Shown one piece after another: positions 1 through 21,181 of a stretch of DNA of 64,000 nt. Made by a program: the position numbers and the translations under genes. The stretch is taken from the NCBI RefSeq assembly GCF_026343185.1, contig NZ_JAPEMA010000002.1:434001-498000 (forward strand), read 5' to 3'. The notes below the pieces were generated by a model. That model worked only from the letters and a program-made list of their open reading frames with translations. It searched no databases and had not been told where the DNA came from. Each line of letters begins with the position of its first letter. The stretch's first letter is position 1. Origin of the DNA: Streptomyces sp. NBC_00091 (GTDB lineage Bacteria; Actinomycetota; Actinomycetes; Streptomycetales; Streptomycetaceae).

Positions 1-14
1 AGGCACGGGCCGCA

Positions 15-1892
15 GTGGCGGACGGGCTCGGGGCGCGGGCCGCCGGGCGGTTCACGGAGCTGCTGGAGCGGGCGCTGGCCGCGCTCGGCGGGCCGCCCGT
101 GGCCGTGACGGCGCTCGGGCTGCGGGACGCCTTCGCCGCGCCGGAGGCGGAGGTCCCGGCGGAGGGGGTCCCGGTGGCCCTGTACGGGCACCAGGCCGTG
201 GTCGGCCCCCTCCCGGCGGACGGGCCGGGGTGCGCGCGGTGCCTGGAGCGGCGCTGGCAGGCCGTGCGGTCGGTCGCGCTGCGGGACGCCCTCGAGCTGG
301 GCGGGGGCACCCGCGCGACGGGTGAGTGGCCGTACGCGCACCCCTTCGCCGCCGACGCGCTGGCCGCGCTGGTGGTGTCGGCGGCCGGCGGCGGGGCGGG
401 CGGGGTGTTCCCCGGCGTGTGGGTGCTGGACCTGCGCAGCGGGGCGGTGCGGGGCTACCCGCTGGTGCCCGATCCGGAGTGTCCGGTGTGCGGGACCCCC
501 GAGGAGGACAGGGCCCGGGCGCTGGATCCGGCGCCCGCGCCCAAGTACCGGCCGGGCGCCTTCCGTACGCGGCCCGTGGAGGCGTACGCCATCGACGTGG
601 CGGCCTTCGCGAACCCGCTGTGCGGGGCCCTGGGGCCCTCGCTGGTCCAGGACGTCTCCTCGACCTCGACCTCCGCGACCATCGGCTGCTTCTCGATGCG
701 CTCGGGCGAGTACCTGCGCGAGACCTTCTGGGGCGGCCACACCGATTCCTTCGACCGCAGCGCCCGCGTCGGCGTGCTGGAGGGGCTGGAGCGGTACGCG
801 GGCATGCGCTCGCGCTCGCGTACGACCAGCGTCACCGGCTCTTTGCGGGCGCTGGGCGCCGACGCCGTCGATCCGCGCGAAGTGGGCCTGTACGGCGAGG
901 GGTTCTACCGGGACAACCCGAGGGTGCGGCCCTTCGACCCGGACCGGGAGATCCCCTGGGTGTGGGGCTGGTCGCTGCGCGACCGCGCACCGCGGCTGGT
1001 CCCGGAGGTGCTGACGTACTATCACGCGCCGGGTCTGGAGAACCGGTTCGTGCAGGAGAGCTCCAACGGCTGTGCCTCGGGCGGGAGTCTGGCCGAGGCC
1101 TGCTACTTCGGGCTGATGGAGGTCGTCGAGCGGGACGCCTTCCTGCTCACCTGGTACGGGCGTCAGCCGCTGCCCGAGATCGATCCGGCCACCAGCTCCC
1201 GGGCCTCGACCCGGGCGATGGTCGACCGGCTCGCCCTGTACGGGTACCGCGCGCGGTTCTTCGACACCCGGATCAGCTTCCCCATCCCGGTGGTGACCGC
1301 CGTCGCCGAGCGGTTCGACGGCGGTACGGGGCGGATGTGCTTCGGGGCGGGGGCCGGGCTGGACCCGGAGTCGGCGCTGGACTCGGCGCTGTGCGAGATC
1401 GCCACGGACGCGGTGAACCTGCCCGGGCGCACCGAGCGGGACGAGGACCGGCTGCGCGCGATGGCGGCCGACTTCGACCTGGTCACCGCCCTGCACGACC
1501 ACCCGCTGGTGTACGGGGTGCCGGAGATGGGCCGGCACGCCGACTTCCTGCTGCGCGGCCCCTCGCGGGGTCCGCTGCGGCCCGTGTCCGCGCTGCGCGG
1601 GCCCGAGGGGGTGTCGCACGACCTGCGCGAGGACCTGGCGCGGTGCGTGGAGGCCGTCGCCGCCGAGGGGTTCGACGTGGTGGTGGTGGACCAGACCCTG
1701 CCCGAGCAGCGGGCGCTGGGCCTGCACACCGTGAGCGTGCTGGTGCCGGGGCTGCTGCCGATCGACTTCGGCTGGTCGCGGCAGCGGGCGCTGGGCATGC
1801 CGCGCCTGCGGACCGCCCTGCGCGCGGCGGGGCTGCGCGAGCGGGACCTGGAGCCCGCCGACCTCAATCCGGCCCCGCACCCCTTCCCCTGA
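15..1892 (+). CDS. YcaO-domain azoline cyclodehydratase (copy 1) of RiPP cluster
   Basis: ATP-dependent YcaO enzyme expected to convert Cys/Ser/Thr of the precursor to azolines. The N-terminal part carries two CxxC pairs (C73/C76 and C156/C159), the zinc-binding remnant of an E1/ocin-ThiF-like partner. The YcaO core shows LEGLERYAG, the ESSNGCASGG stretch near residue 348 and E369-x2-E372-R373. It ends in HPFP, a proline-rich tail typical of TOMM cyclodehydratases. The GTG start has no visible ribosome binding site and the frame stays open to the window edge, so a few N-terminal residues may be missing. Copy 2 (10278-12242) aligns along its whole length, so the two are paralogues. The next gene starts 48 bases downstream in the same direction. 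The family call is firm; the exact substrate is inferred. Confidence 0.9.
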   Translation: MADGLGARAAGRFTELLERALAALGGPPVAVTALGLRDAFAAPEAEVPAEGVPVALYGHQAVVGPLPADGPGCARCLERRWQAVRSVALRDALELGGGTRATGEWPYAHPFAADALAALVVSAAGGGAGGVFPGVWVLDLRSGAVRGYPLVPDPECPVCGTPEEDRARALDPAPAPKYRPGAFRTRPVEAYAIDVAAFANPLCGALGPSLVQDVSSTSTSATIGCFSMRSGEYLRETFWGGHTDSFDRSARVGVLEGLERYAGMRSRSRTTSVTGSLRALGADAVDPREVGLYGEGFYRDNPRVRPFDPDREIPWVWGWSLRDRAPRLVPEVLTYYHAPGLENRFVQESSNGCASGGSLAEACYFGLMEVVERDAFLLTWYGRQPLPEIDPATSSRASTRAMVDRLALYGYRARFFDTRISFPIPVVTAVAERFDGGTGRMCFGAGAGLDPESALDSALCEIATDAVNLPGRTERDEDRLRAMAADFDLVTALHDHPLVYGVPEMGRHADFLLRGPSRGPLRPVSALRGPEGVSHDLREDLARCVEAVAAEGFDVVVVDQTLPEQRALGLHTVSVLVPGLLPIDFGWSRQRALGMPRLRTALRAAGLRERDLEPADLNPAPHPFP

Positions 1893-1940
1893 CCCGGCCG
1901 CCGGCCCGTTCCGGCACGACCGCACACCCGAGGAGGACCC

Positions 1941-3488
1941 GTGGGCTACGCCCATGACTACGCCGGCGCCATCATGTACCGGGGCCGGGTGCCGATGGAG
2001 CCCGTCGACTTCGTACCCGACTGGGCCGACCGTCCCCGCAAGGCGAAGTACTACCCGCAGGCGGAGACCCTGCCGCTGCCCGATCCGGCGCGAGGGCCGC
2101 GGCCCGCCCCCGGATTCACCCTGCCGCTGCTGTCCGGGATGCTCCAGGAGTCGTACGGGCTGACCGGCCGGCGCCTGGGTGTGCAGGCCAACACCGACCT
2201 GGCCGCGCTCCCCCACTACACGCAGGCCAACTGGTCGCGCGGGACCGCCTCCGGCGGCGGGCTCTACCCGGTCGGCGTGTACTGGGCGGCCGGCGCGGGC
2301 GGGCCGCTCACCCCGGGGGTGTACCACTACGCCCCGCACCAGCACGGGCTGCGCAGGCTCCTGGCGGGCGATGTCACCGGTGACGTCCGCGAGGCGCTGG
2401 GCGCCGGCCGCGACAAGGGCTGCTCGCAGTACCTGGTGCTCAGCGTCAAGTACTGGCAGAACTCCTTCAAGTACAACAGCTTCTCCTTCCACGCCGTCAG
2501 CATGGACGTGGGCGCCCTGCTCCAGACCTGGCGGCTGTGGGCCCGGGCGTACGGGCTGCGGATCGCGCCCGCGCTCTGGTTCGACGAGGAGCGGCTCGCC
2601 CGGCTGCTCGGCGTGGCCCCCGAGGAGGAGGGGGTCTTCGCGGTCCTCCCCCTGGAGTGGGAGGGCGACGCCGGGCGCCACCGCGCCGGGGCCCCGGCGG
2701 CGGGCGCCGGCGTCCGCCACCGGGACTCCGAGCGCTCCCGCAGGGTGCTCGCCTTCGAGACCCTGGACCGGATCCACGGGGCCACCCTCGGCCGCGCGGC
2801 CGACCGGCCGGCGCCCGGCGCGCTGGACGCGGCCGCCGCGTACCCGCCGCGGGGCGGGCGGCCCGTCCCCCTGCCCGCCCCGGCGCCGGCCCCGATGGAG
2901 GCGGCGGCCGCGCTGCGGGCCCGGCGCAGCAGCTTCGGCCGGTTCGACGCCACCCGGGCGGTGACGGCGCAGCAGCTGGCGGCGGCGCTGGCGGACTGCG
3001 CCGCGACCCGGCCCGGCAGCGAGGCCGAACGGCCCGACGGGCCGCCGCTGACCTCCCTGTACGCCTTCGTCAACCACGTCGAGGGCGTCGCCCCGGGCAG
3101 CTACGCCTACGACCCGGCGGCGCACACCCTGCGGCTGGTGGTGCCAGGGCCGCCCGGCCCCTTCCTCCAGCGCAACTACTTCCTGTCCAACTACAACCTG
3201 GAGCAGGCGGGCGCCGTACTGGTGCCGACCGTACGGACCACCGCGGTCCTCGACGCGGTCGGCGACCGCGGCTACCGCCTCGTCGGGGCGGCCGTCGGCG
3301 CCGTCGCGCAGACCTTCTACACCACGGCCGCCGCACACGGGCTCGGCGCGGGCGTGGCGCTGGGCTTCGACAACGTCTCGTACGCCGAGCAGCTGGGGCT
3401 GACCGGCACCGACGAGGCACCGCTGCTGATCATGCTGCTCGGCCACGAGCGGCCGCGGCCCGCCGACTTCCGCCACGAGATCGCCTGA
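1941..3488 (+). CDS. SagB/McbC-type FMN-dependent azoline dehydrogenase, tandem domains
   Basis: Flavin enzyme predicted to oxidise thiazolines and oxazolines to thiazoles and oxazoles. Two nitroreductase-like domains lie in tandem (about residues 40-240 and 310-510) in a 515-residue protein. The N-terminal one has the FMN-site motif ASGGGLYPVGVY and Lys-Tyr pairs (VKYWQNSFKYNSFSFHAVSMDVG region split around KYW and KYN), matching the catalytic KY of McbC enzymes. The C-terminal domain keeps the fold signature (RLVGAAVGAVAQTFY) but I see no KY pair, so it may be structural. The GTG start is preceded by GAGGAGGA. It sits between the first YcaO gene and the LanB gene in one operon. The role follows from the family and context. 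Confidence 0.88.
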   Translation: MGYAHDYAGAIMYRGRVPMEPVDFVPDWADRPRKAKYYPQAETLPLPDPARGPRPAPGFTLPLLSGMLQESYGLTGRRLGVQANTDLAALPHYTQANWSRGTASGGGLYPVGVYWAAGAGGPLTPGVYHYAPHQHGLRRLLAGDVTGDVREALGAGRDKGCSQYLVLSVKYWQNSFKYNSFSFHAVSMDVGALLQTWRLWARAYGLRIAPALWFDEERLARLLGVAPEEEGVFAVLPLEWEGDAGRHRAGAPAAGAGVRHRDSERSRRVLAFETLDRIHGATLGRAADRPAPGALDAAAAYPPRGGRPVPLPAPAPAPMEAAAALRARRSSFGRFDATRAVTAQQLAAALADCAATRPGSEAERPDGPPLTSLYAFVNHVEGVAPGSYAYDPAAHTLRLVVPGPPGPFLQRNYFLSNYNLEQAGAVLVPTVRTTAVLDAVGDRGYRLVGAAVGAVAQTFYTTAAAHGLGAGVALGFDNVSYAEQLGLTGTDEAPLLIMLLGHERPRPADFRHEIA

Positions 3489-3518
3489 CCGGGCGACGAG
3501 AGAAGCAGGAAGACCAGG

Positions 3519-6296
3519 ATGAACACCACCACCGAATGGCACACCGGAGAGCGCTTCATGCTGCGCGTCGCCGGCCTGCCCCTGGCCGCGGCCGACGCGC
3601 TGCGCTGCGCCGGCACGGGGCGCTGGGCGGACGACGTGCTCGCGGCCGAGGAGGCGCTGCGGGCGGACGCGCAGTGGCTGAGCGAGGTACTGCACCGGGC
3701 GGTCGGCGCGACCGACCCGGAGCCGGGCGGGCCGGGCGCGGCGCACCGGCGTGAACTGCTGCGGCTGCGCCGGCAGATCCACAACGGGCGGATGCCCGCC
3801 GATCCCGAGGCCGCCCTGCGGGCGGTGGCGGGGCTGGAGGAGAACGCGGGCGACCGGCTGGCCGGCTGGCTCCAGCGGACGCGGGAGCTGGAGAAGCTGC
3901 TGGCCGAGGGGGAGCCGCTGCTGGCCGCCGATCTGGGCCGGGGCCGGGGCGCGCTGCGCGAGCTGCTCGGCGACGACCGGCTGCGGCACGGGCTGCTGCT
4001 GGCCTCGCCGGTCCTGGAGGGACAGCTGGACGCCTACGCGGCGGCCACCGCCGGGGGCGGGGAGCCGGGGGGCCGGGCGCGCAAGGCCGAGCGCTCGGTG
4101 CTCTCGTACCTCTACCGCACCGCTTGCAAGACCAGCCCCTTCAGCACCTTCACCGGGGTGGCGACCGGCCGGTTCGCCCCGGAGGCGGGGACGGACGGGA
4201 TCCGGGTGGAGGACACCTGGAGCAGCCATGTCCGGCTGAACGTGGTGGTGCTGGCGCGGCTCGCCGAGCTGGTCCTCGCCGACCCGGTGCGCCGGCGGGA
4301 CCTGCCGCTGCGGCCGGCCCCGGGCTGGGGGCGGGAGGACGACCGGATCCGCTACGTGCGCCGCTCGGTGACGGCCGGCGACGACACGGCCGCCGTCACC
4401 TTCGACGCGGTCAAGGACCGGCTGTTCTTCCTGCGCCGCAGCGGCACCCTGGACCGGCTGCTGGCCCTGTTCGCGGAGCGGGCGGAGCGGGCGGAGAGCG
4501 GCCCGGGCGGCGGTGAGCCCGAGCTGCGCCACCACGAGCTGGCCGACTGGCTGGCGGCGGAGCACGGGGCCGCCCCCGAGGAGTGCGAGGCGTACATCGG
4601 CGCGCTCCTCCAGCTGGGCATGGTGCGGGTGCCGTGCCTGGACACCGGGGTGCACAGCGGTGATCCGGTCCGCGCCTTCCAGCGGGCCCTGGCCGGGCTG
4701 GAGCGGCCCTGGGCCGGCGAGCTGGCCGCGCTGCTGGAGGAGCCCGCCCGGCTGCTGGAGCGCTACCCGCTCGCGGGGCGCGCCGAGCGCCGCGAACTGC
4801 TGCTGCTCCTGCGGGCCGCGCTGCGCCGGGCGCAGGAGGAGCTGGGCGCGCCGCCGGACGCGCCGCTGCCGCAGACGCTGGTGTACGAGGACACGAGCGC
4901 GGGCCGCGACCTGGCCGCGGCGCGCCCGGCCTGGGCGGAGCCGGGCGCGGACGGCGGCTCGCTGCGGTCGGTCGAGCGGATCCTGCCGGCCTTCGACCTC
5001 ACGCTCGCCCAGCGGATCACCTTCGAGGGGTTCTTCACGGCGCGCTACGGCCGGGGCGGGCGCTGCGAGGACCTGCTGGGCCTGGTGCACGACTTCCACG
5101 AGGACTTCTTCGACCAGTACCTGTCCTTCACCGCGCGGCGTACGCCCTTCGACGCGCGGGGCGAGTACGTGCCCGAGGAGAACTGGCTGGGCCTGCCCGG
5201 GATCCGGGCCCTGGACGCGGCGCGGCGGGCCTTCACGGACCGGATGCGGGCGCACTGGGCCGCGTACGAGGAGCGGGGCGGCAGCGGCGAACTGCGGCTC
5301 GGGGAGGAGGACGTGGAGGCGGTGGCGCGGGAACTGGAGCCGGTGGCGGCCGGGTTCGCCCCGCGCTGCCACCACCTCCAGTTCGCCGGGGACCCGGACA
5401 CGGGAGAGCGGCTGACGGTGCTCAACCGCTCCTACGGCGGGCTGTCCTTCCCGTTCAGCCGGTTCACACACCTCTACCCGGAGCCGTCGGCGCTGGACGG
5501 GCGGCTGCGCGAGAGCGCCGCCGAAGTCACCCCGCCGGGCGCGGTGTTCGCGGAGGTCACCGGCGGCCCGGTCACCACCAACCTGAACCTGCACGGCCGG
5601 CTCACCGAGTACGAGATCGTCTGCCCGGGCGAGACCGGCACCCTGCCGGAGGACCGGCTGCTGCGCCTGGACGACCTGTACGCGGAGCACGTCCCCGACA
5701 CCGGGCGGGTGGTGCTGCGCTCGCGCCGCCTGGGCCTGGAGGTGATCCCGGTCTACCTGGGCTACCTGGTGCCGCTCGCGCTGCCCGCCGTACCGCGCAC
5801 CCTGCTGCTGCTCTCGCCGTCCTCGATGTCCCCGCTGGACGTCTGGGCGGGGGTCGCGGAGGGCGCCCCGCAGGGCGGGGTGAGCGCGCGTCCGCGGGTG
5901 GTGCACGGGGACCTGGTGCTGAGCCGGCGCAGCTGGACGACCACGGCGGGCGAACTGCCGGTGCGCGGGGCGCGGGAGGCCGCGCACTTCCTGGAGTGGC
6001 AGCGGTGGCGGCGGGCGCACGGACTGCCGGAGCGGGTGTTCGCGACCGTGTCGGCGGGTCACTCGGCGCTCGGTGCCAAACCGCAGTACGTGGACTTCGC
6101 GAGCCTGCTCTCGCTGGCGGCCTTCGAGCCGCTGCTGCGCGAGAGCGGCCACCGGGTCGTCTTCCGCGAGATGCTCCCCGACCCCGGCGGCCTGCACACC
6201 CGCTCGGCGCGCGGGGCGCACGTCGCCGAACTCGCCGTCGAGACCTTCACCACGACCACCCGGACCCCGGAGGGCGCAACCCCATGTCAGAGCTGA
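3519..6296 (+). CDS. Split LanB dehydratase, glutamylation (Lant_dehydr_N) protein
   Basis: Large (925 aa) lantibiotic-dehydratase N-terminal protein. Characterised relatives use glutamyl-tRNA to glutamylate Ser/Thr side chains of the precursor, the first step to dehydroalanine or dehydrobutyrine. The family motif RTACKTSPFSTFTG lies near residues 198-211, and ITFEGFFTARYG and LNRSYGGLSFPFSRF follow further on. The elimination domain that ends full-length class I LanB proteins is absent and is encoded by the next gene. Such splitting is typical of thiopeptide and goadsporin pathways. The start ATG follows GAGAAGCAGGAAGACCAGG, a purine-rich ribosome binding region. The 3' end overlaps the next gene by 13 bases, which suggests translational coupling. 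Confidence 0.92.
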   Translation: MNTTTEWHTGERFMLRVAGLPLAAADALRCAGTGRWADDVLAAEEALRADAQWLSEVLHRAVGATDPEPGGPGAAHRRELLRLRRQIHNGRMPADPEAALRAVAGLEENAGDRLAGWLQRTRELEKLLAEGEPLLAADLGRGRGALRELLGDDRLRHGLLLASPVLEGQLDAYAAATAGGGEPGGRARKAERSVLSYLYRTACKTSPFSTFTGVATGRFAPEAGTDGIRVEDTWSSHVRLNVVVLARLAELVLADPVRRRDLPLRPAPGWGREDDRIRYVRRSVTAGDDTAAVTFDAVKDRLFFLRRSGTLDRLLALFAERAERAESGPGGGEPELRHHELADWLAAEHGAAPEECEAYIGALLQLGMVRVPCLDTGVHSGDPVRAFQRALAGLERPWAGELAALLEEPARLLERYPLAGRAERRELLLLLRAALRRAQEELGAPPDAPLPQTLVYEDTSAGRDLAAARPAWAEPGADGGSLRSVERILPAFDLTLAQRITFEGFFTARYGRGGRCEDLLGLVHDFHEDFFDQYLSFTARRTPFDARGEYVPEENWLGLPGIRALDAARRAFTDRMRAHWAAYEERGGSGELRLGEEDVEAVARELEPVAAGFAPRCHHLQFAGDPDTGERLTVLNRSYGGLSFPFSRFTHLYPEPSALDGRLRESAAEVTPPGAVFAEVTGGPVTTNLNLHGRLTEYEIVCPGETGTLPEDRLLRLDDLYAEHVPDTGRVVLRSRRLGLEVIPVYLGYLVPLALPAVPRTLLLLSPSSMSPLDVWAGVAEGAPQGGVSARPRVVHGDLVLSRRSWTTTAGELPVRGAREAAHFLEWQRWRRAHGLPERVFATVSAGHSALGAKPQYVDFASLLSLAAFEPLLRESGHRVVFREMLPDPGGLHTRSARGAHVAELAVETFTTTTRTPEGATPCQS

Positions 6297-7351
6297 CCCC
6301 GACGCCCGGCGCCTGGCAGGCCGTGCACGTCTTCTACGCCGCGAACCCGCAGCCGCTGCTGGTCCAGTGCGTGCGGCCGCTGATCGCCTCCCTCACCGAG
6401 GAGGGGCTGCTGGCGGGGCACTTCTTCATCAACTACTGGCTGGAGGGCCCGCACGTGCGGCTGCGGCTGCGGCCGGTGAGCCCGCAGGCGGAGCCGGAGG
6501 TGCGCCGGCGTACCGAGGAGGCGGTGACGGCGTTCCTGAAGGCCCGGCCCGCGCTGTACGAGGTGGACTCCGGTTTCCTCAACGAGTTCTACAACACCCT
6601 GTTCGACATCGAGTTCCCCGAGGGGGACCGGGCCGCCTTCATGGGCGAGGACGGCCGGATGAACCTGCGGCCGAACAACTCCTGGTCCTACGAGCCGTAC
6701 GAGCCGGAGTACGGGAAGTACGGCGGCCCGGCCGGGGTCGAGCTCGCGGAGTGGCACTTCGCGCACTCCAGCGATCTCGTCATGGACGCCCTGGGCGGGA
6801 TGAACCTGCACCTGCGGACCGTACTGCTGGGCACCTCCGCGCAGCTGATGATGGTGATGGCCGGGGTGTTCCTGCCCGACCGGGAGGACCTGGGCGGCTA
6901 CCTCGACCGCTACTACCAGTTCTGGCACCGGGCCTTCCCCGGCACCGGTTTCATCGGCTCCGCCGAGTACGACAGGACGTACGAGCAGACCGGGCCCGGT
7001 CTCGGGCGGCGGTTCGGCGCGGTGCTGGAGGCGCTCGGCACCGGGGAGACCGGCCGGCTGCCCGGCTTCCTCGCCGGCTGGGCCGAGCACTGCCGGGAGC
7101 TGCGGCGGCGCGCCGAGGCCCTGGCCGTGGGCGGGGAGCTGGTGTTCCGGTCCTGGGACGGGAGCCGGGACGAGCGGGTGACGGATCCGGCGGTGGCGCT
7201 GCCGCTGCTGCTGTCCCCGTACATGCACATGACCAACAACCGGCTGCACGTGACCATCCGGGACGAGGCCTACCTGGCGCACCTGCTGGGCCGGGTGCTG
7301 CGGGAGGGAGCCGCCGGGGGCGCGGAGGCGGCCCCGGCGGTCGGGCCGTGA
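6284..7351 (+). CDS. Split LanB elimination protein (SpaB C-terminal / thiopeptide-type domain)
   Basis: This 355-residue stand-alone SpaB_C domain should remove glutamate from glutamylated Ser/Thr to give dehydroamino acids. Visible family landmarks are the opening WQAVHVFYAANPQPLL, FFINYWLEGPHVRLRLRP, YEPEYGKYGGPAGVELAEWHF and HMTNNRLHVTIRDEAYLAHLL; these match the PHLRLR, YxPExxRYGG and HMxxNRL elements of elimination domains. The same superfamily includes pyridine synthases of thiopeptide pathways. The retained KYGG segment and its place directly after the glutamylation gene favour elimination. It overlaps its upstream neighbour by 13 bases and its stop overlaps the next GTG (GTGA). No second SpaB_C protein is present in the window, so a macrocyclising homologue is not seen. 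Confidence 0.85.
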   Translation: MSELTPTPGAWQAVHVFYAANPQPLLVQCVRPLIASLTEEGLLAGHFFINYWLEGPHVRLRLRPVSPQAEPEVRRRTEEAVTAFLKARPALYEVDSGFLNEFYNTLFDIEFPEGDRAAFMGEDGRMNLRPNNSWSYEPYEPEYGKYGGPAGVELAEWHFAHSSDLVMDALGGMNLHLRTVLLGTSAQLMMVMAGVFLPDREDLGGYLDRYYQFWHRAFPGTGFIGSAEYDRTYEQTGPGLGRRFGAVLEALGTGETGRLPGFLAGWAEHCRELRRRAEALAVGGELVFRSWDGSRDERVTDPAVALPLLLSPYMHMTNNRLHVTIRDEAYLAHLLGRVLREGAAGGAEAAPAVGP

Positions 7352-8454
7352 CCACGCCCTCCGGAATGCTGGACCACCGGCCGGCGCTGCGGCCGGGGAT
7401 CCTGCTGTCGCCGCCGCTGCTGAACGGCCCCGCCGTCGTACACCTGGTCAAGGACCCGGTGTCCGGGGCGGCGTTCGAGATCGGGCCGAAGGAGTACTTC
7501 CTCGTCTCGCGCCTCGACGGCTCGCGCAGCCTGGCGGAGATCGGCGAGGCGTACGGGCAGGCCTTCGGGCGCCGCCTGGGCGAGCGGAACTGGCAGCAGC
7601 TGCTCGGGCTGCTCGGGAGCCGGCGGCTGCTCGCGGGCGGCCCGGCCCCGCAGCCCGGGGCCGGGCCCGGGCCGCAGCGGACCGGGACCCTGCTGCGCGG
7701 CACCCTGCGGCTGGTCGCGGACGCCGATGCCACGACGGCGCGGCTGCACCGGTTGCTGCGGCCGGTCCTGCGGCCGGCGGTGCTGGGCGCGCTGCTGCTC
7801 GTACTCCTGGCCATGGAGGGGTGGCTCGCGGCGTCGGCGGGCCGGCTCCTCGCGGATCTGCGGTGGTTACTGTCGCATCCGGTGCCGCTGCTGGCCGTGG
7901 CCACGCTGCTGTGGCTCAGTACGGCCCTGCACGAGTTCGCGCACGGGATCGCCGCCCGGCACGTGGGCGGCACGGTCGGGGAGATCGGGCTGCGCTGGCG
8001 GCTGCCGATGGTCATCATGTACTGCCGGGTCGACAACTACCGCTACCTGCCCCGCCGCCGGGACCAGCTGGCCGTCGCCGGAGCGGGCGCCTTCGCCAAC
8101 CTCCTCTTCCTGCTGCCGTTCTGCGCCTGGTGGGCGGCGCTGCCGGCGGGCGACGCCACCGGCCGGGTGCTGGGCGCGCTGCTGCTGCTCGGCAGTGCGC
8201 AGGCCCTCGTCAACCTGGTCCCACTGCCGCCGCTCGACGGCTACACCCTGCTCGGGCACGCGCTGCGCGTGACCCGGCTGGCGCCCGCCAGCTCGGCCTA
8301 CCTGCGGCTACGGGCGCGCGACCGTGCCGCGGCGGCCGCCTATCCGGCGCGGGCCCGCCGGCTCTACCTCGGCTACGGGATCGGCTCGGCGGTGCTGGTC
8401 CTGCTCCTGGCCGGGCTCCTGACGGCCGCCGTCCTGCTCACCGCCAGCCCCTGA
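7348..8454 (+). CDS. Membrane M50 metallopeptidase with N-terminal PqqD-like domain
   Basis: Predicted intramembrane zinc peptidase of 368 aa. Residues about 28-95 resemble a PqqD-like winged helix, the fold used as a RiPP leader-recognition element. Several membrane helices follow. The zinc motif HEFAH lies at 195-199 and the second M50 motif NLVPLPPLDG at 289-298. In this cluster it is the only visible candidate to cut the leader from the precursor; that is inference. The GTG start overlaps the preceding stop codon. Leu174 is encoded by TTA (7867-7869), the codon read by bldA tRNA in Streptomyces, so translation may depend on developmental stage. The next gene begins 82 bases downstream after a G-free pyrimidine tract. 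Confidence 0.82.
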   Translation: MTTPSGMLDHRPALRPGILLSPPLLNGPAVVHLVKDPVSGAAFEIGPKEYFLVSRLDGSRSLAEIGEAYGQAFGRRLGERNWQQLLGLLGSRRLLAGGPAPQPGAGPGPQRTGTLLRGTLRLVADADATTARLHRLLRPVLRPAVLGALLLVLLAMEGWLAASAGRLLADLRWLLSHPVPLLAVATLLWLSTALHEFAHGIAARHVGGTVGEIGLRWRLPMVIMYCRVDNYRYLPRRRDQLAVAGAGAFANLLFLLPFCAWWAALPAGDATGRVLGALLLLGSAQALVNLVPLPPLDGYTLLGHALRVTRLAPASSAYLRLRARDRAAAAAYPARARRLYLGYGIGSAVLVLLLAGLLTAAVLLTASP

Positions 8455-8460
8455 ACCGAC

Positions 8461-8507
8461 TTCCCCCCACCCACCCCCCTTTCCTCCCCCATCCACTCCC
8501 CCCACCC
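8461..8507 (+). other. G-free C-rich tract between peptidase and exporter genes
   Basis: Forty-seven consecutive plus-strand bases contain no G and are mostly C, in a genome of about 73 percent GC. A transcript from here would be a C-rich, unstructured stretch like a Rho loading site. It lies after the M50 stop and before the ABC transporter start, so it could tune expression of the exporter. This reading is inference from composition only. Confidence 0.4.
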
Positions 8508-8536
8508 GCTTCCGACACCGAGGGAACCGCACGCCC

Positions 8537-9529
8537 ATGACAACTGACCGCACTCCCCCGCCCGACGCGCCCGTGGCCGTCGCCGTCCGGGAGGTCCGCA
8601 AGCGCTACGGCGACCGACAGGCCGTGGACGGGCTCTCCCTCGACGTGCGCCGCGGCGAGTTCTTCGGCCTGCTCGGCCCCAACGGCGCGGGCAAGACCAC
8701 CTTCATCGAGATCGTCGAGGGCCTGCGCCAGGCCGACTCCGGCACGGTCGAGGTCCTCGGCCAGAGCCCCTGGCCGCGCAACACGGCCCTGCTGCCCCGG
8801 ATCGGCGTCCAGACCCAGGCCTCGGCCTTCTTCGTCCGGCAGACCGCGCGCGAACACCTCGCCACCGTCGCCGGGCTGTACCGCAAGGACGCGGCCGCCG
8901 CGGACCGCACGCTGGAGACGGTCGGGCTGACCGAGCAGCGCGACGTGCTCGTGGAGAACCTCTCGGGCGGCCAGCGCCAGCGGCTCGCCATCGCGTCGGC
9001 CCTGGTCCACGACCCCGAGCTGATCTTCCTCGACGAGCCGACCGCCGCCCTCGACCCGCAGGCCCGCCGGGACCTGTGGCAGGTGCTGCGCACCCTCAAG
9101 AGCGAGGGCCGCACCATCGTCTACACCACCCACCACCTCGACGAGGCCGAGGCCCTGTGCGACCGGGTGGCCATCCTGGTCGGCGGCCGCATCGCCGCAC
9201 TGGACTCCCCGCACCAGCTGATCACCGCCGCCGGGGCCCGGGCCCGGCTGCTGGTACCGGCGGGACGGATCACCCCGGCGCAGGCCGCCGCCCTGGACGG
9301 GGTGGAGCGGGTCGGCGAACAGGGCGGCTCGCTCGTGCTGGAGACCTCGGCCCCCGGCAAGGTGCTCCAGGCCGTCGACGCCCTCACCGGGCTCGACGGG
9401 GTGATGACCCGCACGGCGACCCTGGAGGACGTCTACCTGGAGCTGACCGGCCGCCCCGGGGCCGACGGCCACACCGGCGGCCAGACCGACGGCCACACGC
9501 CCGCACACACCACGGAGTCCCGCGCATGA
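8537..9529 (+). CDS. ABC transporter ATP-binding protein (peptide export/immunity)
   Basis: Nucleotide-binding subunit of a two-gene exporter of the drug/DrrA type. Walker A GPNGAGKTT lies at 47-55, the signature NLSGGQRQRLAIA near residue 145 and Walker B LIFLDEPTAALDPQ just after, followed by the H-loop TTHHLDEAE. A C-terminal extension of about 100 residues ends in a Gly/His/Thr-rich tail. It partners the permease encoded directly downstream, which it overlaps by ATGA. In the middle of a RiPP operon the likely job is export of the mature peptide or self-protection; no substrate can be read from the sequence. Confidence 0.9.
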   Translation: MTTDRTPPPDAPVAVAVREVRKRYGDRQAVDGLSLDVRRGEFFGLLGPNGAGKTTFIEIVEGLRQADSGTVEVLGQSPWPRNTALLPRIGVQTQASAFFVRQTAREHLATVAGLYRKDAAAADRTLETVGLTEQRDVLVENLSGGQRQRLAIASALVHDPELIFLDEPTAALDPQARRDLWQVLRTLKSEGRTIVYTTHHLDEAEALCDRVAILVGGRIAALDSPHQLITAAGARARLLVPAGRITPAQAAALDGVERVGEQGGSLVLETSAPGKVLQAVDALTGLDGVMTRTATLEDVYLELTGRPGADGHTGGQTDGHTPAHTTESRA

Positions 9530-10281
9530 GCGCCTACACGGCACTGACCGCCGCCGGCTACCGGGCCCAGGTCCGGGACAAGGCCACCCTCTTCTTCACC
9601 TTCGCCTTCCCACTCCTGTTCCTCGTGGTCTTCGGCCTGATCTTCAGCGGCCAGGACGTGGAGGAGAGCGGCCGCCCCTACATCTCGTACATCGCGCCCG
9701 GCGTGATGTCCTGGGGCGTCGCCAACGCCGCCGTCTTCGGCATCGCCTTCACCCTGATGCAGTGGCGCCGCGACGACCTGCTGCGGCTGATCCGGCTCAG
9801 CCCGACACCGCTGACCACGGTGCTGGCCTCGCGCTACGTACTGGCCCTCGTGGTCGGTGTGGTGCAGGCCGCCGTGTTCGTGGCCGTCGCCATGCTGCCC
9901 GGCTTCGGGCTCGAGCTGGACGGGCGCTGGCCACTGGTGCTGCCCGCGCTGGTGTTCGGCATCACGGCCTTCATGGCGATCGGGGTGATCGTCGGCAACT
10001 ACGCCAAGACCCCCGAGGCCGTCGCCGCGATCGCCAACTGCCTGATGGTGCCCATGGCGTTCCTGTCGGGATCCTTCCTGCCGCTCGACATGATGCCGTC
10101 CTGGCTGCGGTCGGTCTCCCGGGTGCTGCCGCTGCGCTACCTCAACGACGCCGCCTCCGGGGCCCTGACCGGCTCCGGCTCCCTCGCCACGATCGGCATC
10201 GGCTGCGCCGCGCTGACCGGCTTCGCCCTGCTGTTCGGCGGGATCGGGCTGAAGACCTTCCGCTGGAGCAACCAGTCATGA
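9526..10281 (+). CDS. ABC-2 type transporter permease
   Basis: A 251-residue integral membrane protein of the ABC-2 family with about six hydrophobic segments: an early FFTFAFPLLFLVVFGLIF helix, a central block around residues 60-160 and a C-terminal pair. It carries the family motif PMAFLSGSFLPLDMMPSWL followed by LPLRYLNDA. It forms the membrane channel for the ATPase encoded upstream, whose stop codon its ATG overlaps. Its own stop overlaps the ATG of the second YcaO gene. Thus transport and modification genes are translationally coupled, which supports membership in the RiPP operon. Confidence 0.9.
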   Translation: MSAYTALTAAGYRAQVRDKATLFFTFAFPLLFLVVFGLIFSGQDVEESGRPYISYIAPGVMSWGVANAAVFGIAFTLMQWRRDDLLRLIRLSPTPLTTVLASRYVLALVVGVVQAAVFVAVAMLPGFGLELDGRWPLVLPALVFGITAFMAIGVIVGNYAKTPEAVAAIANCLMVPMAFLSGSFLPLDMMPSWLRSVSRVLPLRYLNDAASGALTGSGSLATIGIGCAALTGFALLFGGIGLKTFRWSNQS

Positions 10282-12242
10282 CACCCGTCGCTTCGAGGAC
10301 CGTACGGGCGGCCGCGGCCCCCGACGGCACCGCGCTGGAGACGGCCCGCCGGCAGCTCGAGCGGGCGCTGGCCGCCGCCGCCCCTGACGCGGCGCGGCCG
10401 TACGTGGTCACGCTGGGGGTGCACGACGCCCTCGGGCCGCGCGCCGCCGACCCCTTCGCCGCGCTGCGCCCGGCCGCCACCGTCCATCTCGGCGCCCAGG
10501 CCGTGCTCCTGGGGCCCTGGGGCGGCGACGGCACCGCCCCCGCATGCGGGCAGTGCCTGGCCATGCGCTGGCAGCGGCTGCGCAGCAGGAGCGAGCGCGA
10601 CGCGCTGGAGACCGGCAGCGGGCCGCGCACCCCCGTCTCGGCCCACTGGCCCCGGCTGTCGCCGTACGTGCTGGACGCGGTCGCCGCCCTGCACGCGGCG
10701 GTCCTGGGCGGCGACGCGAAGGCTCCGGGCCCTCTGGCCGCCGACCGGGCGCTGCCCCAGGTGTCCCGCCTGGACCTGGAGACCCTCCAGGTGCGTACGT
10801 ACCCGCTGGCCGCCGACCCGCTCTGCCCCGACTGCGGGCCGCGCGGCGCCGACGCCCCGCGGCCCTTCGTCCCCGCCTCCCGGCCCAAGCCCGCCCCGCA
10901 GGCGCAGCGGCTGCGCAAGGCCTCCTCGTACCCGGTGCCGCGGGAGGCGCTGGCCAATCCGGTGACCGGGGTGCTCGGCGGAGGCACCTGGATCAACGTG
11001 ACCTCGCCGACCACCGCGCCGGTCGCGGGCAGCGTCTTCATGCGCGGCTACGCGGGGCTCACGGACGTCACCTGGAGCGGTCAGGCCAACAGCTTCTCGG
11101 CCAGCCGCGACCTCGCCTTCCTGGAAGGGCTGGAGCGGTACGCCGGCACGCACCGCCGCACCGGCGCCGAGGCGCTCACCGCCTCCTACGCGGAGCTGGG
11201 CGAGCGGGCCCTGAATCCGGCGGAGTGCGGGTTCTACCCGCCCGCGACCTACCGCGACGACCCCCTGGTGTCGCCCTTCGACCCCGAGCGGCCCATCCCC
11301 TGGGTGTACGGGCACTCGCTGCGCGACGACCGGCCCGTGCTGGTGCCGGCGCGCCTGGCCTACTACAGCGCGGGCCTGGCCGCCGACAACTTCGTCTTCG
11401 AGTGCTCCAACGGCTGCGCGATCGGCGGCTGCCTGGAGGAGGCGGTGCTCGGCGCCCTGCTGGAGCTGATCGAGCGGGACGCCTTCCTGCTCGCCTGGTA
11501 CGGCGGCCAGCGGCTGACGGAGATCGACCTGGACTCCGTACCGGGGCCGGCGGTGCGGATGATGGTGGACCGGGCCGCCCTCCAGGGGTACGACGTGCAC
11601 GCCTTCGACAACCGGATCGACCTCGCGGTGCCCGTGGTGACGGGACTGGCCGTACGGCGCGACGGCGGACCGGGGCTGTACTCCTTCGGCGCGGGCGCGG
11701 CGCTCGATCCGGCGGCGGCGGTGGAGGCCGCGCTGTCGGAGGTGCTCACCTACATCCCGCACCTGCCCCGGCAGGTGGCCGAGCGGCAGGGTGAACTGGA
11801 GGCGATGGCCGGGGACTTCGGGCTGGTCAGACACCTCAAGGACCATGCCCAGCTGTACGGGCTGCCCGCGATGGCCCCGCACGCGCGCACCTACCGGGAG
11901 CCGCTCGCCGTACGGCCCATGGCGGAGCTGTACGAGCGGTGGGAGGCCCACGGCCGGCCGAGGACCGGCGACCTGCGGGACGATCTGCTGCTGTGCGTGG
12001 GCGAGTTGACGGGGGCCGGGCACGATGTGATCGTCGTCGACCAGACCACGCCGGAGCAGCGCCGGATGGGGCTGCACACCGTGTGCGCCATCGTGCCGGG
12101 GCTGCTGCCGATCGACTTCGGCTGGTCGCGCCAGCGGGCCCCGTACATGCCCCGGCTGCGGACGGCCGCCCAACGGGCGGGGCTGCGCGAGAGTGCCCTG
12201 ACGGACGCGGAGATCCGGCTGGTGCCGCACCCGTTCCCCTGA
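10278..12242 (+). CDS. YcaO-domain azoline cyclodehydratase (copy 2) of RiPP cluster
   Basis: Second YcaO protein (654 aa), collinear with copy 1. It shares the tetracysteine N-terminal part (C90/C93 and C183/C186), LEGLERYAG, an SNGCAIGGCLEEAV block, ERDAFLLAWYGGQ, VVDQTTPEQRRMGLHTV and LLPIDFGWSRQRAPYMPRLRTA, and the HPFP C terminus. All YcaO landmarks seen in copy 1 are retained, so there is no sign that this copy is inactive. Two active paralogues in one cluster suggest division by residue type (Cys versus Ser/Thr) or by core region, but this is inference. The ATG overlaps the permease stop. It is the last gene of the operon before a strong hairpin. Confidence 0.9.
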   Translation: MTPVASRTVRAAAAPDGTALETARRQLERALAAAAPDAARPYVVTLGVHDALGPRAADPFAALRPAATVHLGAQAVLLGPWGGDGTAPACGQCLAMRWQRLRSRSERDALETGSGPRTPVSAHWPRLSPYVLDAVAALHAAVLGGDAKAPGPLAADRALPQVSRLDLETLQVRTYPLAADPLCPDCGPRGADAPRPFVPASRPKPAPQAQRLRKASSYPVPREALANPVTGVLGGGTWINVTSPTTAPVAGSVFMRGYAGLTDVTWSGQANSFSASRDLAFLEGLERYAGTHRRTGAEALTASYAELGERALNPAECGFYPPATYRDDPLVSPFDPERPIPWVYGHSLRDDRPVLVPARLAYYSAGLAADNFVFECSNGCAIGGCLEEAVLGALLELIERDAFLLAWYGGQRLTEIDLDSVPGPAVRMMVDRAALQGYDVHAFDNRIDLAVPVVTGLAVRRDGGPGLYSFGAGAALDPAAAVEAALSEVLTYIPHLPRQVAERQGELEAMAGDFGLVRHLKDHAQLYGLPAMAPHARTYREPLAVRPMAELYERWEAHGRPRTGDLRDDLLLCVGELTGAGHDVIVVDQTTPEQRRMGLHTVCAIVPGLLPIDFGWSRQRAPYMPRLRTAAQRAGLRESALTDAEIRLVPHPFP

Positions 12243-12258
12243 TCCCGGGCCCATGCCG

Positions 12259-12296
12259 GATGCCCCGGACCCCCCTCGTGCGGGGTCCGGGGCATC
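12259..12296. terminator. Bidirectional terminator between RiPP operon and precursor gene
   Basis: Perfect 15-bp inverted repeat (GATGCCCCGGACCCC at 12259-12273 and its complement at 12282-12296) with an 8-base loop. It lies between the ends of two converging genes, so it can stop both transcripts. No long T run follows, as is usual for actinobacterial hairpins. Confidence 0.8.
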
Positions 12297-12322
12297 GGTG
12301 CGTTGCGGGTGCGGCGCTGGGG

Positions 12323-12496
12323 TCAGGCGCTGCAGGAGGTGGTGCTGGTGGTGGAGGAACAGGTCGAGGTGGAGCTGCAGCTCGTGGAACCGGCGAGCAC
12401 GACCTCGCTGGCGTCCGAGTAGTCGGAGATCTCGAAGGTCTCCGACTCCAGCTCCAGGATCTCGTCGGCGAGCGAGGCGAGCGGCGACTTCTCCAT
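12323..12496 (-). CDS. RiPP precursor peptide (thiazolylpeptide-type), Ser/Thr/Cys-only core
   Basis: A 57-residue precursor. The acidic leader (MEKSPLASLADEIL to EVVLAG, residues 1-36) includes FEISDYSDASE, in the style of thiazolylpeptide precursors. The predicted 21-residue core (37-57) contains 10 Ser, 7 Thr, 3 Cys (core positions 4, 10, 19) and a final Ala, so 20 of 21 positions can be cyclised or dehydrated. I chose the ATG at 12496 over the one at 12511 because AAGGAG lies inside the first codons of the longer reading and sits six bases before the second ATG, while nothing resembling a ribosome binding site precedes the first. The cleavage point after Gly36 is inferred. The gene faces the enzyme operon and shares its terminator. 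Confidence 0.88.
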   Translation of the reverse strand: MEKSPLASLADEILELESETFEISDYSDASEVVLAGSTSCSSTSTCSSTTSTTSCSA

Positions 12497-12637: not shown

Positions 12638-12665
12638 CTGACACTCCTCTGACAGAAAGTGTCAG
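12638..12665. promoter_or_regulatory. CTGACA direct and inverted repeats upstream of precursor and amidohydrolase
   Basis: CTGACA occurs at 12638 and again at 12649, 11 bases apart. The second copy is also the left arm of CTGACA-GAAAG-TGTCAG (12649-12665). An 11-base pitch is what SARP activators use; a palindrome would suit a dimeric repressor. The site lies in the divergent space between the precursor gene and the M20 gene. The regulator is not identified. Confidence 0.45.
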
Positions 12666-12701: not shown

Positions 12702-13988
12702 ATGGTCGTCATGACCGTCTCCACCGTGCTCGCCGGACTCCCGCCGCTCCTGCGGCCCCTGACGACGCTCTACCTGGACCTGCACCGCCATCCCGAACTG
12801 TCGGGCGAGGAGCGGCGCACGGCCGGGCGCTTCGCCGACTGGCTGGAGTCCGCCGGGTACGCGACCACGCGCGGGATCGGCGGGCACGGCGTGGCCGGGG
12901 TGCTGCGGCGGGGAGCGGGGCCGACCGTGATGCTGCGCGCCGAGCTGGACGCGCTGCCGGTCCGGGAGACCACGGGGCTGCCGTACGCGAGCGAGGGCCC
13001 GGTGGCGCACGCCTGCGGGCACGACCTCCACCTGGCCGCGGCCGCCGGTACCGCCTCCCTGCTGGCCGGCGCCGGCCCGGAGGCCTGGCAGGGCACGCTC
13101 GTGGTGGTGGGGCAGCCCGCGGAGGAGACCCTGGAGGGGGCGCGGGCGATGCTGGCCGACGGGCTGTACGAGCGCACCGGCCGCCCGGACACCGTCCTCG
13201 CGCAGCACGCCGCCCCGCTGCCGGCCGGGATGGTCGCGCACGGGTACGGGCCGATGACCGCCGGGAGCGTCACCTTCCGGGTCGTCGTGCACGGGCGCGG
13301 CGGGCACGCGGGGGCCCCGCACCTGACGGTGGACCCGGTGGTGACGGCGGCCCACGTGGTGACCCGCCTGCAGACGGTGGTGGCCCGGGAGGCGGCGCCC
13401 TCGGAGCAGGTGGCCGTCACGGTGGGCTCGCTGCGGGCCGGGGAGCGGGCCAACATCGTGCCCGACCGGGCCGAGCTGGGGATCACCGTACGGGCGGCCG
13501 GCGAGGCGGCGCTCGCGCGGGCGGCGGAGGCGGTCGAGCGGATCGTGCGCGCCGAGTGCGCGGCCTCGGGCTGTCCCCGGGAGCCGGAGATCGTCCGCGA
13601 GGGCTCCTCCCCCGTCACCCACCCCGATCCGGCGACGACGGCCGCGGTGCGCGCGGCCCACACGGCGCGGTTCGGGGCGGAGCGGGTGGCGATGTGGCCG
13701 CCGTCCCTCGCCACGGAGGACTTCGGGCTGTTCGGCGACGCAGGGCGGTCCGTGCACGGTGCGCGGGGGGTCCGGCTCGCCTACTGGATGCTGGGGGTGA
13801 TCGGCCCGGCCGCCTGGGCGGCGGCGCCCGGGGAGGGCGCGGCCGGGAAACTGGCGGCCCTCCCCGCCAACCACGCCCCGGACTTCGCCCCGGACGTGCG
13901 TACGGCGCTGCCGGCCGGGGTCGGCGCGCTGACGGCGGCGGCCCTGGCCTGCCTCGCGCCGGCCGGATCGGCCCGGTCGGCTGCTTGA
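12702..13988 (+). CDS. M20D-family amidohydrolase (metallo-dependent carboxypeptidase-like)
   Basis: Zinc- or manganese-dependent amidohydrolase of the hippurate hydrolase/IAA-amino acid hydrolase group, which hydrolyses N-acyl amino acids or small amides in the cytoplasm. Metal-site motifs are RAELDALPV (79-87), HACGHD (103-108) and QPAEE (about 138-142); the dimerisation-domain motif GRGGHAGAPHLTVDP follows. Length (428 aa) is normal. Two in-frame ATGs (12702 and 12711) are possible and neither has a clear ribosome binding site. It is divergent from the RiPP precursor and convergent with the MerR gene, whose stop is 10 bases away. A link to RiPP processing is possible but unsupported. Confidence 0.85.
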   Translation: MVVMTVSTVLAGLPPLLRPLTTLYLDLHRHPELSGEERRTAGRFADWLESAGYATTRGIGGHGVAGVLRRGAGPTVMLRAELDALPVRETTGLPYASEGPVAHACGHDLHLAAAAGTASLLAGAGPEAWQGTLVVVGQPAEETLEGARAMLADGLYERTGRPDTVLAQHAAPLPAGMVAHGYGPMTAGSVTFRVVVHGRGGHAGAPHLTVDPVVTAAHVVTRLQTVVAREAAPSEQVAVTVGSLRAGERANIVPDRAELGITVRAAGEAALARAAEAVERIVRAECAASGCPREPEIVREGSSPVTHPDPATTAAVRAAHTARFGAERVAMWPPSLATEDFGLFGDAGRSVHGARGVRLAYWMLGVIGPAAWAAAPGEGAAGKLAALPANHAPDFAPDVRTALPAGVGALTAAALACLAPAGSARSAA

Positions 13989-21090: not shown

Positions 21091-21181
21091 TCGCTCTCTT
21101 CTCCCCCTGCGGCGGCAGGGAATTTCAGGCTCGTACTCGGGTGGGGACGGGGGGTGGGAAGGCGTGGGGGCGAGCTCCGGC

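What the first reader, a model, noticed from the sequence alone, without database searches (positions are those of the whole stretch)
15..12496. RiPP cluster with a core of almost only Ser, Thr and Cys and a paired-YcaO enzyme set
The 21-residue predicted core has 20 modifiable residues. The operon supplies two YcaO cyclodehydratases, a tandem-domain dehydrogenase and a split LanB pair, so nearly every position could become an azole, azoline or dehydroamino acid. Each enzyme family is known from goadsporin and thiopeptide pathways, but I know no characterised product with this core and two YcaO proteins.
Basis: partly seen in the sequence, partly recalled or inferred. Interest (0 to 1): 0.85.

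Follow-up and report, generated by a model that had tools for sequence, protein, structure and literature searches.

The report
Widespread Streptomyces azole-peptide gene cluster
This is a bacterial gene cluster for a small peptide made almost only of serine, threonine and cysteine that a set of enzymes probably turns into a chain of ring-shaped and unsaturated residues; much the same peptide occurs in many Streptomyces, yet no product was tied to it in the papers we could search.

Summary
Window 1-12.5 kb holds two fused YcaO cyclodehydratases, a SagB dehydrogenase, a split LanB pair, an M50 protease, an ABC exporter and, on the opposite strand, a precursor whose 21-residue core has 20 Ser/Thr/Cys. 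The window cuts the cluster: in relatives a third YcaO-family protein, an Ocin-ThiF-like partner with a degenerate YcaO domain, lies just upstream. The family is widespread: all 80 fetched relatives keep gene order; 64 of 392 Streptomyces-genus genomes hold the precursor. Databases call it "thiazolylpeptide-type bacteriocin", but no dedicated pyridine synthase was found and the single LanB-C resembles the eliminases of real thiopeptide clusters. Best reading: a linear, goadsporin-like azole/dehydroamino-acid peptide. Most core positions keep Ser or Thr although codons change, even between Ser codon boxes, and precursor promoters carry 11-bp-spaced TGNCAG repeats (42 of 65; shuffles at most 2), a SARP-like operator. 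No product was found in our searches. New variant of a known kind; chemistry and role untested.

The parts
3..1892 (+). YcaO1: fused leader-binding/E1-like (C) and YcaO (D) cyclodehydratase; true start probably left of the window
   Evidence: TIGR03604 315.6 bits, TIGR03882 103.7 bits; PF02624 285 bits; YcaO motifs conserved
1941..3488 (+). tandem-domain SagB/nitroreductase FMN dehydrogenase (azoline to azole)
   Evidence: TIGR03605 145.7 bits, 2 stretches; PF00881, 2 stretches
3519..6296 (+). split LanB, glutamylation part (Lant_dehydr_N)
   Evidence: PF04738 143 bits; sequence match to a lantibiotic dehydratase domain protein, 6ec7, E 8.6e-40
6284..7351 (+). split LanB, probable glutamate-elimination part (Lant_dehydr_C), not a typical pyridine synthase
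   Evidence: PF14028 138.4 bits, TIGR03891 78.1 bits over cut-off 48.45, NF045556 100.1 bits against cut-off 325; control and motifs; model
7348..8454 (+). membrane M50-type metalloprotease with HExxH, candidate leader protease
   Evidence: PF02163 37 bits, NF041824 daptide HExxH 91.1 bits, below its cut-off 300; HExxH in 81 of 81 sequences incl. window
8537..9529 (+). ABC exporter ATPase (DrrA-like)
   Evidence: TIGR01188 218.4 bits, below its cut-off 312.45; PF00005 106.6 bits
9526..10281 (+). ABC-2 permease (DrrB-like)
   Evidence: PF01061 94 bits
10278..12242 (+). YcaO2: second fused C-D cyclodehydratase, 46.6% identical to YcaO1 over 618 aligned positions
   Evidence: TIGR03604 328.4 bits, TIGR03882 82 bits; identity; motifs
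12259..12296 (.). strong hairpin between the converging YcaO2 and precursor genes, likely bidirectional terminator
   Evidence: RNA fold of 12240-12310: -49.1 kcal/mol, z -3.10
12323..12496 (-). precursor peptide, 57 aa from the likelier ATG (62 aa from ATG 12511); core GSTSCSSTSTCSSTTSTTSCSA
   Evidence: (TIGR03892)
12638..12665 (-). SARP-like operator upstream of the precursor at 11-bp spacing: CTGACACTTTC / TGTCAGAGGAG / TGTCAG
   Evidence: 42 of 65 precursor upstreams have TGNCAG pairs spaced 11 bp; 100 dinucleotide shuffles mean 0.06, max 2
12702..13988 (+). M20 peptidase/amidohydrolase, divergent neighbour of the precursor, conserved beside the cluster
   Evidence: PF01546 81.4 bits; match in 69 of 80 relatives plus window

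Best explanation
A biosynthetic cluster for a linear, exported peptide in which the Ser/Thr/Cys core becomes a mixed chain of azoles and dehydroamino acids, working like goadsporin. Proposed steps: (1) a SARP-type activator turns on the precursor promoter; (2) an Ocin-ThiF-like (F) protein encoded, in relatives, just upstream binds the leader (ELESETFEISDYSD); (3) two YcaO cyclodehydratases convert chosen Cys/Ser/Thr to azolines, perhaps dividing Cys from Ser/Thr or N-terminal from C-terminal positions; (4) SagB oxidises them to azoles; (5) LanB-N glutamylates and LanB-C eliminates at remaining Ser/Thr to give Dha/Dhb; (6) the M50 protease removes the leader near EVVLA/G and the ABC pair exports the product. 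No pyridine macrocycle is made. Shown here by sequence: gene content and order, conserved YcaO motifs, eliminase-like LanB-C, no dedicated pyridine synthase in the window cluster or in the one relative genome (CWH03) searched for all PF14028 genes, operator repeats, conserved core. Inferred: all chemistry, division of labour between the YcaOs, cleavage site, role of M20 and biological role.
For: Families of every enzyme. Gene order kept in 80 of 80 relatives; F through YcaO2 complete in 65 of 80; of the other 15, 14 are loci under 15 kb and one (L032) is a 21-kb locus with a run of N. Both YcaOs keep SNGCA, ERDxFL, DQTxPEQ and the PHPFP end in nearly all sequences; the F protein's YcaO domain lacks these motifs in 68 of 69 loci, the 69th (L058) apparently a mis-assigned YcaO1. 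10 of 392 genomes have a pyridine synthase over the NF045556 cut-off (396-482 bits, profile 1-353); a second related protein beside each of these 10 scores 43-103 bits over about the first 170-270 positions, and the matches of this family score about 77-103 bits over about 1-276. RPNN/PND.., E.HF..SS.L and H..xNR motifs are shared with those partners, and the synthases' C-terminal L(C/S)HL..(N/R)(T/A)VE stretch is missing (HMxxNRL in 81 of 81). CWH03's genome has two PF14028 genes, one in each of two clusters. BTAD (SARP) proteins lie directly upstream of F in L006 and CWH03. Goadsporin enzymes work azoles first, then Dha (passages of PMC5303826).
Confidence: 0.72

Rival explanations
1. It is a true thiopeptide: the single LanB-C protein is bifunctional (elimination and [4+2] cycloaddition), or an unrecognised or trans-acting enzyme closes the pyridine macrocycle.
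For: Precursor matches TIGR03892 and the upstream partner resembles the thiopeptide F protein; AF2 model of LanB-C is closest to TbtD; antiSMASH labels 'LAP, thiopeptide' for regions in two species that carry this cluster (tables seen; same loci not verified).
Against: LanB-C scores and motifs resemble those of the partners sitting beside real synthases; 0 of the 64 precursor-positive genomes is among the 10 with an over-cut-off synthase (with 10 in 392 only about 1.6 would be expected by chance, so this is weak); CWH03 has no further PF14028 gene for this cluster.
Confidence: 0.13
2. The product family is already known as spongiicolazolicin, because the producer Streptomyces sp. CWH03 (S. pacificus) carries this very cluster (L035).
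For: L035 is strain CWH03 and has the identical 22-residue core; spongiicolazolicins are 28 and 29 residues with azoles (review passage PMC8838263), a length that this core could reach only with six or seven leader residues; the CWH03 search for Lant_dehydr_N rings on this cluster and on C16, not on the second azole cluster on C1.
Against: CWH03 has a second YcaO/SagB/Lant_dehydr_C locus on contig C1 with four precursor ORFs, all four matching the thiocillin-family model (54.6-64 bits, cut-off 25), whose cores read partly as X-(S/T/C)-X triplets, e.g. NCA GSA STA GSF SCP; this fits the reported tripeptide pattern with an unmodified third residue (PMC11583998 passage). The original paper is not held.
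Confidence: 0.05
3. Lanthionine-type product: Cys thiols add to dehydrated Ser/Thr.
For: Three Cys and many Ser/Thr plus a LanB pair.
Against: No LanC cyclase among the proteins scanned; in the fetched loci Cys exchanges with Ser/Thr at positions 2, 3, 5, 11, 15 and 21, as azole sites can and thioether donors cannot.
Confidence: 0.05
4. Relic or inactive cluster.
For: No product known in the searches made; one precursor-positive genome (G378) has a LanB-C match with an inner stop, and one (G202) gave no NF045556 match.
Against: All cluster frames in the window are open and motifs intact; core residues unchanged while codons turn over across 68 clusters.
Confidence: 0.03

Closest known systems
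Goadsporin (god cluster, Streptomyces sp. TP-A0584)
   Same: Fused cyclodehydratase GodD, dehydrogenase GodE, split LanB GodF/GodG; azoles first, then Dha (passages of PMC5303826; PMC4603692)
   Different: Here two YcaOs plus an F-like protein, M50 protease instead of the peptidase-ABC GodB, no GodH-like acetyltransferase found, and a core without spacer residues
Coryneazolisins (PMC4603692, section 26 read)
   Same: Two cyclodehydratase D proteins, LanB-like dehydratases, no [4+2] enzyme, core almost only Cys/Ser/Thr; uncharacterised
   Different: There one D protein is discrete and one fused and the core has an inner Ile; here both are fused and the core has no such break. Corynebacterium sequences were not fetched
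Thiopeptides with fused cyclodehydratase and F protein (thiostrepton/thiocillin group of PMC4603692, section 12 read)
   Same: Precursor family TIGR03892, Ocin-ThiF-like partner, fused YcaO, SagB, split LanB
   Different: No dedicated pyridine synthase; second YcaO
Spongiicolazolicins A/B (strain CWH03)
   Same: Producer genome also carries this cluster (L035)
   Different: Reported length and triplet pattern fit a second cluster of that genome better
Dehydrazoles (carnazolamide, PMC10676384, passages)
   Same: Azoles plus dehydroamino acids on an STC-rich core
   Different: LanM-type hybrid dehydratase and long NH-like leader there

Membership tests
Thiopeptide | [4+2] pyridine/aza-cyclase (TbtD type) | tested here: not met
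   NF045556 100.1 bits, cut-off 325; genome control; motif comparison; one PF14028 gene in the cluster. The fold comparison alone is inconclusive and a bifunctional enzyme is not excluded
Thiopeptide | thiazolylpeptide precursor | tested here: met
   TIGR03892 49.2 bits, cut-off 25
Thiopeptide | YcaO, SagB and split LanB | tested here: met
Thiopeptide | F (Ocin-ThiF) protein | tested here: inconclusive
   in relatives only, left of the window: TIGR03693 63.5-87.2 bits against cut-off 561.9, leader-binding domain TIGR03882 53.9-62.8 bits over cut-off 36.9
Goadsporin-type LAP | fused YcaO + SagB + split LanB, no [4+2] enzyme | tested here: met
Goadsporin-type LAP | GNAT N-acetyltransferase and peptidase-ABC transporter | tested here: not met
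   none among the cluster proteins scanned; DNA left of the window not available
Goadsporin-type LAP | core of X-(S/T/C)-X units with non-modifiable spacers | tested here: not met
   core sequence; rule from PMC5303826 passages
Goadsporin-type LAP | linear product with azoles and Dha | not testable with these tools
   needs mass spectrometry
Coryneazolisin | two D proteins, one discrete and one fused | tested here: not met
   both carry TIGR03882 and TIGR03604
Coryneazolisin | LanB-like dehydratases without [4+2] enzyme | tested here: met
TfuA-dependent thioamidated RiPP | tfuA gene beside a YcaO | tested here: not met
   no TfuA model among the hits of the cluster proteins scanned; DNA left of the window not available

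The most novel reading that the evidence does not exclude
A near-invariant, SARP-controlled polyazole/dehydro peptide kept across many Streptomyces and some other actinomycetes is a conserved signal or self-acting factor (as goadsporin acts on streptomycete development) rather than an arms-race antibiotic, and the two YcaOs divide the core between them (for instance Cys to thiazole and Ser/Thr to oxazole), giving an almost fully modified, linear 21-22-mer of a type not yet isolated.
Probability: 0.3. Interest if true: 0.78.

Novelty: new variant of a known kind. Interest (0 to 1): 0.55.

Why it matters
The family is common (64 of 392 Streptomyces-genus genomes) and annotated as thiopeptide, yet its gene content says otherwise and no product was found in our searches. 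A core that holds Ser apart from Thr at most positions across relatives whose LanB-N proteins can be only 54% identical points to a precise structure and a conserved target. It offers a clean test of why some pathways carry two cyclodehydratases, and of how YcaO and LanB share Ser/Thr residues, the basis of which PMC10676384 (passage) says is not yet known.

Tried and rejected
Whole genome of the window: none held, so the F protein and SARP gene of this strain are inferred from relatives only. Viral contigs: no match. Nei-Gojobori dN/dS of the core (0.63; leader 0.15) was rejected as a measure, because AGY/TCN serine switches are scored there as amino-acid changes; it would by itself read as a less constrained core. 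Parsimony on a LanB-N tree was used instead: 20 of 27 leader positions also show no change (counted), but the rows were gathered with a pattern that fixed most leader letters and limited core letters to G, S, T, C, A, N, so leader conservation is partly by construction; the choice among S, T and C in the core was left free. One search's 72 rows include one gene twice (L082 lies inside L035's locus), so 71 distinct; one search used 68 clusters without that duplicate. One search kept 78 of 120 precursors by a regular expression that also dropped same-register variants, so it is not used for counts; it and one search show Cys now and then also at positions 4, 7, 8, 10 and 18 in wider relatives, which blurs the azole-site reading. 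Fold search could not separate eliminase from synthase. The phylum sample gave 4 of 396 genomes, all four also in the genus sample, so spread outside Streptomyces rests on protein names and one locus, Sphaerimonospora L050 (its fetched stretch ends with YcaO2). Six loci without the downstream precursor were checked: 6 of 6 hold it on the same contig (contig lengths compared), in five 1.3-2.0 kb beyond the fetched upstream edge, in one (L016/G003) about 14 kb beyond the other edge. Other loci without a precursor are cut or shorter. I considered that S. lavendulae CCM 3239 region 21 ('Thiopeptide, LAP' with a GAPDH) is this cluster; not verified.

Papers that would have helped are not held. An order-level search of YcaO2 gave no usable answer twice.
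Full report
WHAT IS THERE. The left 12.5 kb of the window carries, on the plus strand, YcaO1, SagB, LanB-N, LanB-C, an M50 membrane protease, an ABC ATPase, an ABC permease and YcaO2, and on the minus strand, convergent with YcaO2, the precursor gene. Models support each assignment: SagD-type YcaO 315.6 and 328.4 bits (cut-off 219.25) with leader-binding domain 103.7 and 82 bits for the two YcaOs; SagB 145.7 bits; thiopeptide-type LanB-C 78.1 bits (cut-off 48.45); precursor TIGR03892 49.2 bits (cut-off 25); Lant_dehydr_N 143 bits, Lant_dehydr_C 138.4 bits and Peptidase_M50 37 bits. The predicted core is (G)STSCSSTSTCSSTTSTTSCSA: 20 of 21 residues are Ser, Thr or Cys.

WHAT THE WINDOW CUTS OFF. 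No genome is held for this window. I fetched 80 loci from named actinomycete genomes by LanB-C (151 confirmed, best 80 kept). All 80 keep the same gene order as far as they reach; F-YcaO1-SagB-LanBN-LanBC-M50-ABC-ABC-YcaO2 is complete in 65 of 80, and 56 of 80 also show precursor and M20 downstream. Of the 15 incomplete ones, 14 are under 15 kb and L032 is a 21-kb locus with a run of N and no YcaO2 match. The extra upstream gene (731-827 aa in three examples) matches part of the Ocin-ThiF model, far below its cut-off (63.5-87.2 bits against 561.9), and the leader-binding domain above its cut-off, and has a degenerate YcaO domain (TIGR03604 21.8-45.6 bits against 219.25; PF02624 57.5 bits for L006). 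So the cluster has three YcaO-family proteins: two that keep the conserved motifs and one partner. Directly upstream of F, a BTAD (SARP) protein is found in L006 (fragment within the locus) and in CWH03 (L085, 121.3 bits); in L003 the fetched stretch shows only an NB-ARC part and in L035 no family. An M20 hydrolase sits divergently beside the precursor (window 12702-13988) and matches in 69 of the 80 relatives.

ARE THE YCAOS INTACT? YcaO1 and YcaO2 are 46.6% identical. Across pooled sets of 79 sequences each, ERDxFL is present in 79 and 79, SNGCA-type in 78 and 79, DQTxPEQ in 77 and 76, and the terminal P(H/Q)PFP or PHPFP in 78 and 78; LEG(L/A)ERYAG in 63 of the YcaO1 set and LEGLERYAG in 79 of the YcaO2 set. 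These sets contain some paralogues where a contig lacks one YcaO, so they are not exact orthologue counts. F proteins lack the motifs in 68 of 69 loci; the exception, L058, is apparently a mis-assigned YcaO1 hit. Both YcaOs match LynD, TruD and MusD by sequence. That the motifs mean catalysis rests on established knowledge of the family, not on an assay.

HOW CONSERVED IS THE CORE. 156 precursors were found at E <= 0.01 (120 listed; 28 read, all 120 tails). In the fetched loci 72 precursor rows (71 distinct genes) give ten core versions; 34 rows have exactly the window's core. Ser is unchanged in every row at positions 4, 6, 7, 9, 12, 16 and 19 and Thr at 8, 10, 14, 17 and 18, although Ser codons switch between AGY and TCN boxes; in these rows Cys exchanges with Ser or Thr only at 2, 3, 5, 11, 15 and 21. 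On a LanB-N tree of 68 clusters, parsimony needs 0 amino-acid changes at 16 of 22 positions while 15 of these 16 need 1-11 codon changes; codon-box switches occur at 4, 6, 7, 9, 12, 13, 16 and 19. Identical cores occur in pairs whose LanB-N proteins are only 53.8% identical. The leader motif is also conserved (20 of 27 positions unchanged), partly because the rows were gathered by a leader pattern; so the statement is not that the core outdoes the leader, but that each position's residue type is held. Wider relatives vary more in the N-terminal part, show Cys at a few further positions and mostly keep ...STCSSTTSTTSC. I read positions where Cys swaps with Ser/Thr as likely azole sites, since all three can form azoles but Cys cannot become Dha by LanB; this is inference.

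SPREAD. Precursor in 64 of 392 Streptomyces-genus genomes (in one, G043, only 59-60% identical) and 4 of 396 drawn across the phylum, all four also in the genus set. Protein names add Kitasatospora, Micromonospora, Actinokineospora, Catenulispora, Solwaraspora, Dactylosporangium, Nonomuraea, Yimella and Nocardiopsis. LanB-C has at least 769 homologues at E <= 1e-5 (only the 7991 nearest candidates were scored).

REGULATION. 42 of 65 precursor upstream regions contain TGNCAG twice at exactly 11-bp spacing, in 35 of the 42 beginning 107-129 bp before the ATG; the other spacings tested from 7 to 23 bp gave 0-5, except 25 at 23 bp; 100 dinucleotide shuffles of the same regions gave mean 0.06, maximum 2 at 11 bp. 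In the window two TGTCAG units and a related CTGACAC unit follow each other at 11-bp steps at 12638-12665 (minus strand). Eleven-base heptamer repeats are the known mark of SARP binding (recalled, not from a call). The convergent genes are separated by a strong hairpin at 12259-12296.

WHAT IS KNOWN. Core strings occur in 0 papers of the library. Searches for coryneazolisin (1 paper), thiazolylpeptide-type bacteriocin, spongiicolazolicin (7 papers), berninamycin/cyclodehydratase, two cyclodehydratases and others showed in their listings, and in the passages read, no product tied to this core; most subscription papers are not held. Cox et al. 2015 (PMC4603692; passages, sections 26 and 12 read) describe coryneazolisins with two D proteins and LanB-like dehydratases without a [4+2] enzyme. 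antiSMASH tables in PMC11678301 and PMC8510958 (passages) list 'LAP, thiopeptide' regions in S. albidoflavus (best known cluster 4%) and S. lavendulae CCM 3239 ('not reported'), a species and a strain that appear here as L015 and L003; that these are the same loci is likely but unverified. Strain CWH03 (L035) makes spongiicolazolicins (28-29 residues, PMC8838263 passage), but its second cluster, with four thiocillin-family precursors of partly triplet pattern, fits them better, although no Lant_dehydr_N match was found at that second cluster.

VERDICT. An intact, widespread and annotated but apparently uncharacterised RiPP family, best read as a goadsporin-like linear azole/dehydro peptide with doubled YcaO. 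New variant of a known kind. The unusual points are the Ser/Thr/Cys-only core held position by position, the doubled YcaO with an F-like partner, and the operator; all chemistry remains to be tested.

Noticed in passing
window 17282-22141 (-): MFS transporter, an 886-aa tandem ATP-grasp protein with an L-amino-acid-ligase C domain, and a PALP (cysteine-synthase-like) enzyme in a row: looks like a small dipeptide or amino-acid-ligase natural product cluster.
   Followed up: no
L086 (strain CWH03, G001:C1:35500-55000): A second YcaO/SagB/Lant_dehydr_C cluster with four precursor ORFs, all matching the thiocillin-family model NF033482 (54.6-64 bits, cut-off 25); cores partly X-(S/T/C)-X triplets; probable spongiicolazolicin source, but no Lant_dehydr_N match there.
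   Followed up: partly
L028 16066-16680, L056 16093-16808: Two tandem precursor genes with slightly different cores in one cluster.
   Followed up: no
L060, L066, L069, L073, L076 (precursors L097, L095, L094, L096, L098): In five relatives the precursor lies 1.3-2.0 kb beyond the fetched upstream edge on the same contig instead of downstream; five rows with core GCTSTSSTSTSSSTCSTTSCSA (Cys at 2, 15 and 20) were counted.
   Followed up: partly
window 13998-14651 (-): MerR-family regulator next to the M20 gene; matched beside the cluster in only two of 80 relatives (L001, L003), so probably not part of it.
   Followed up: partly
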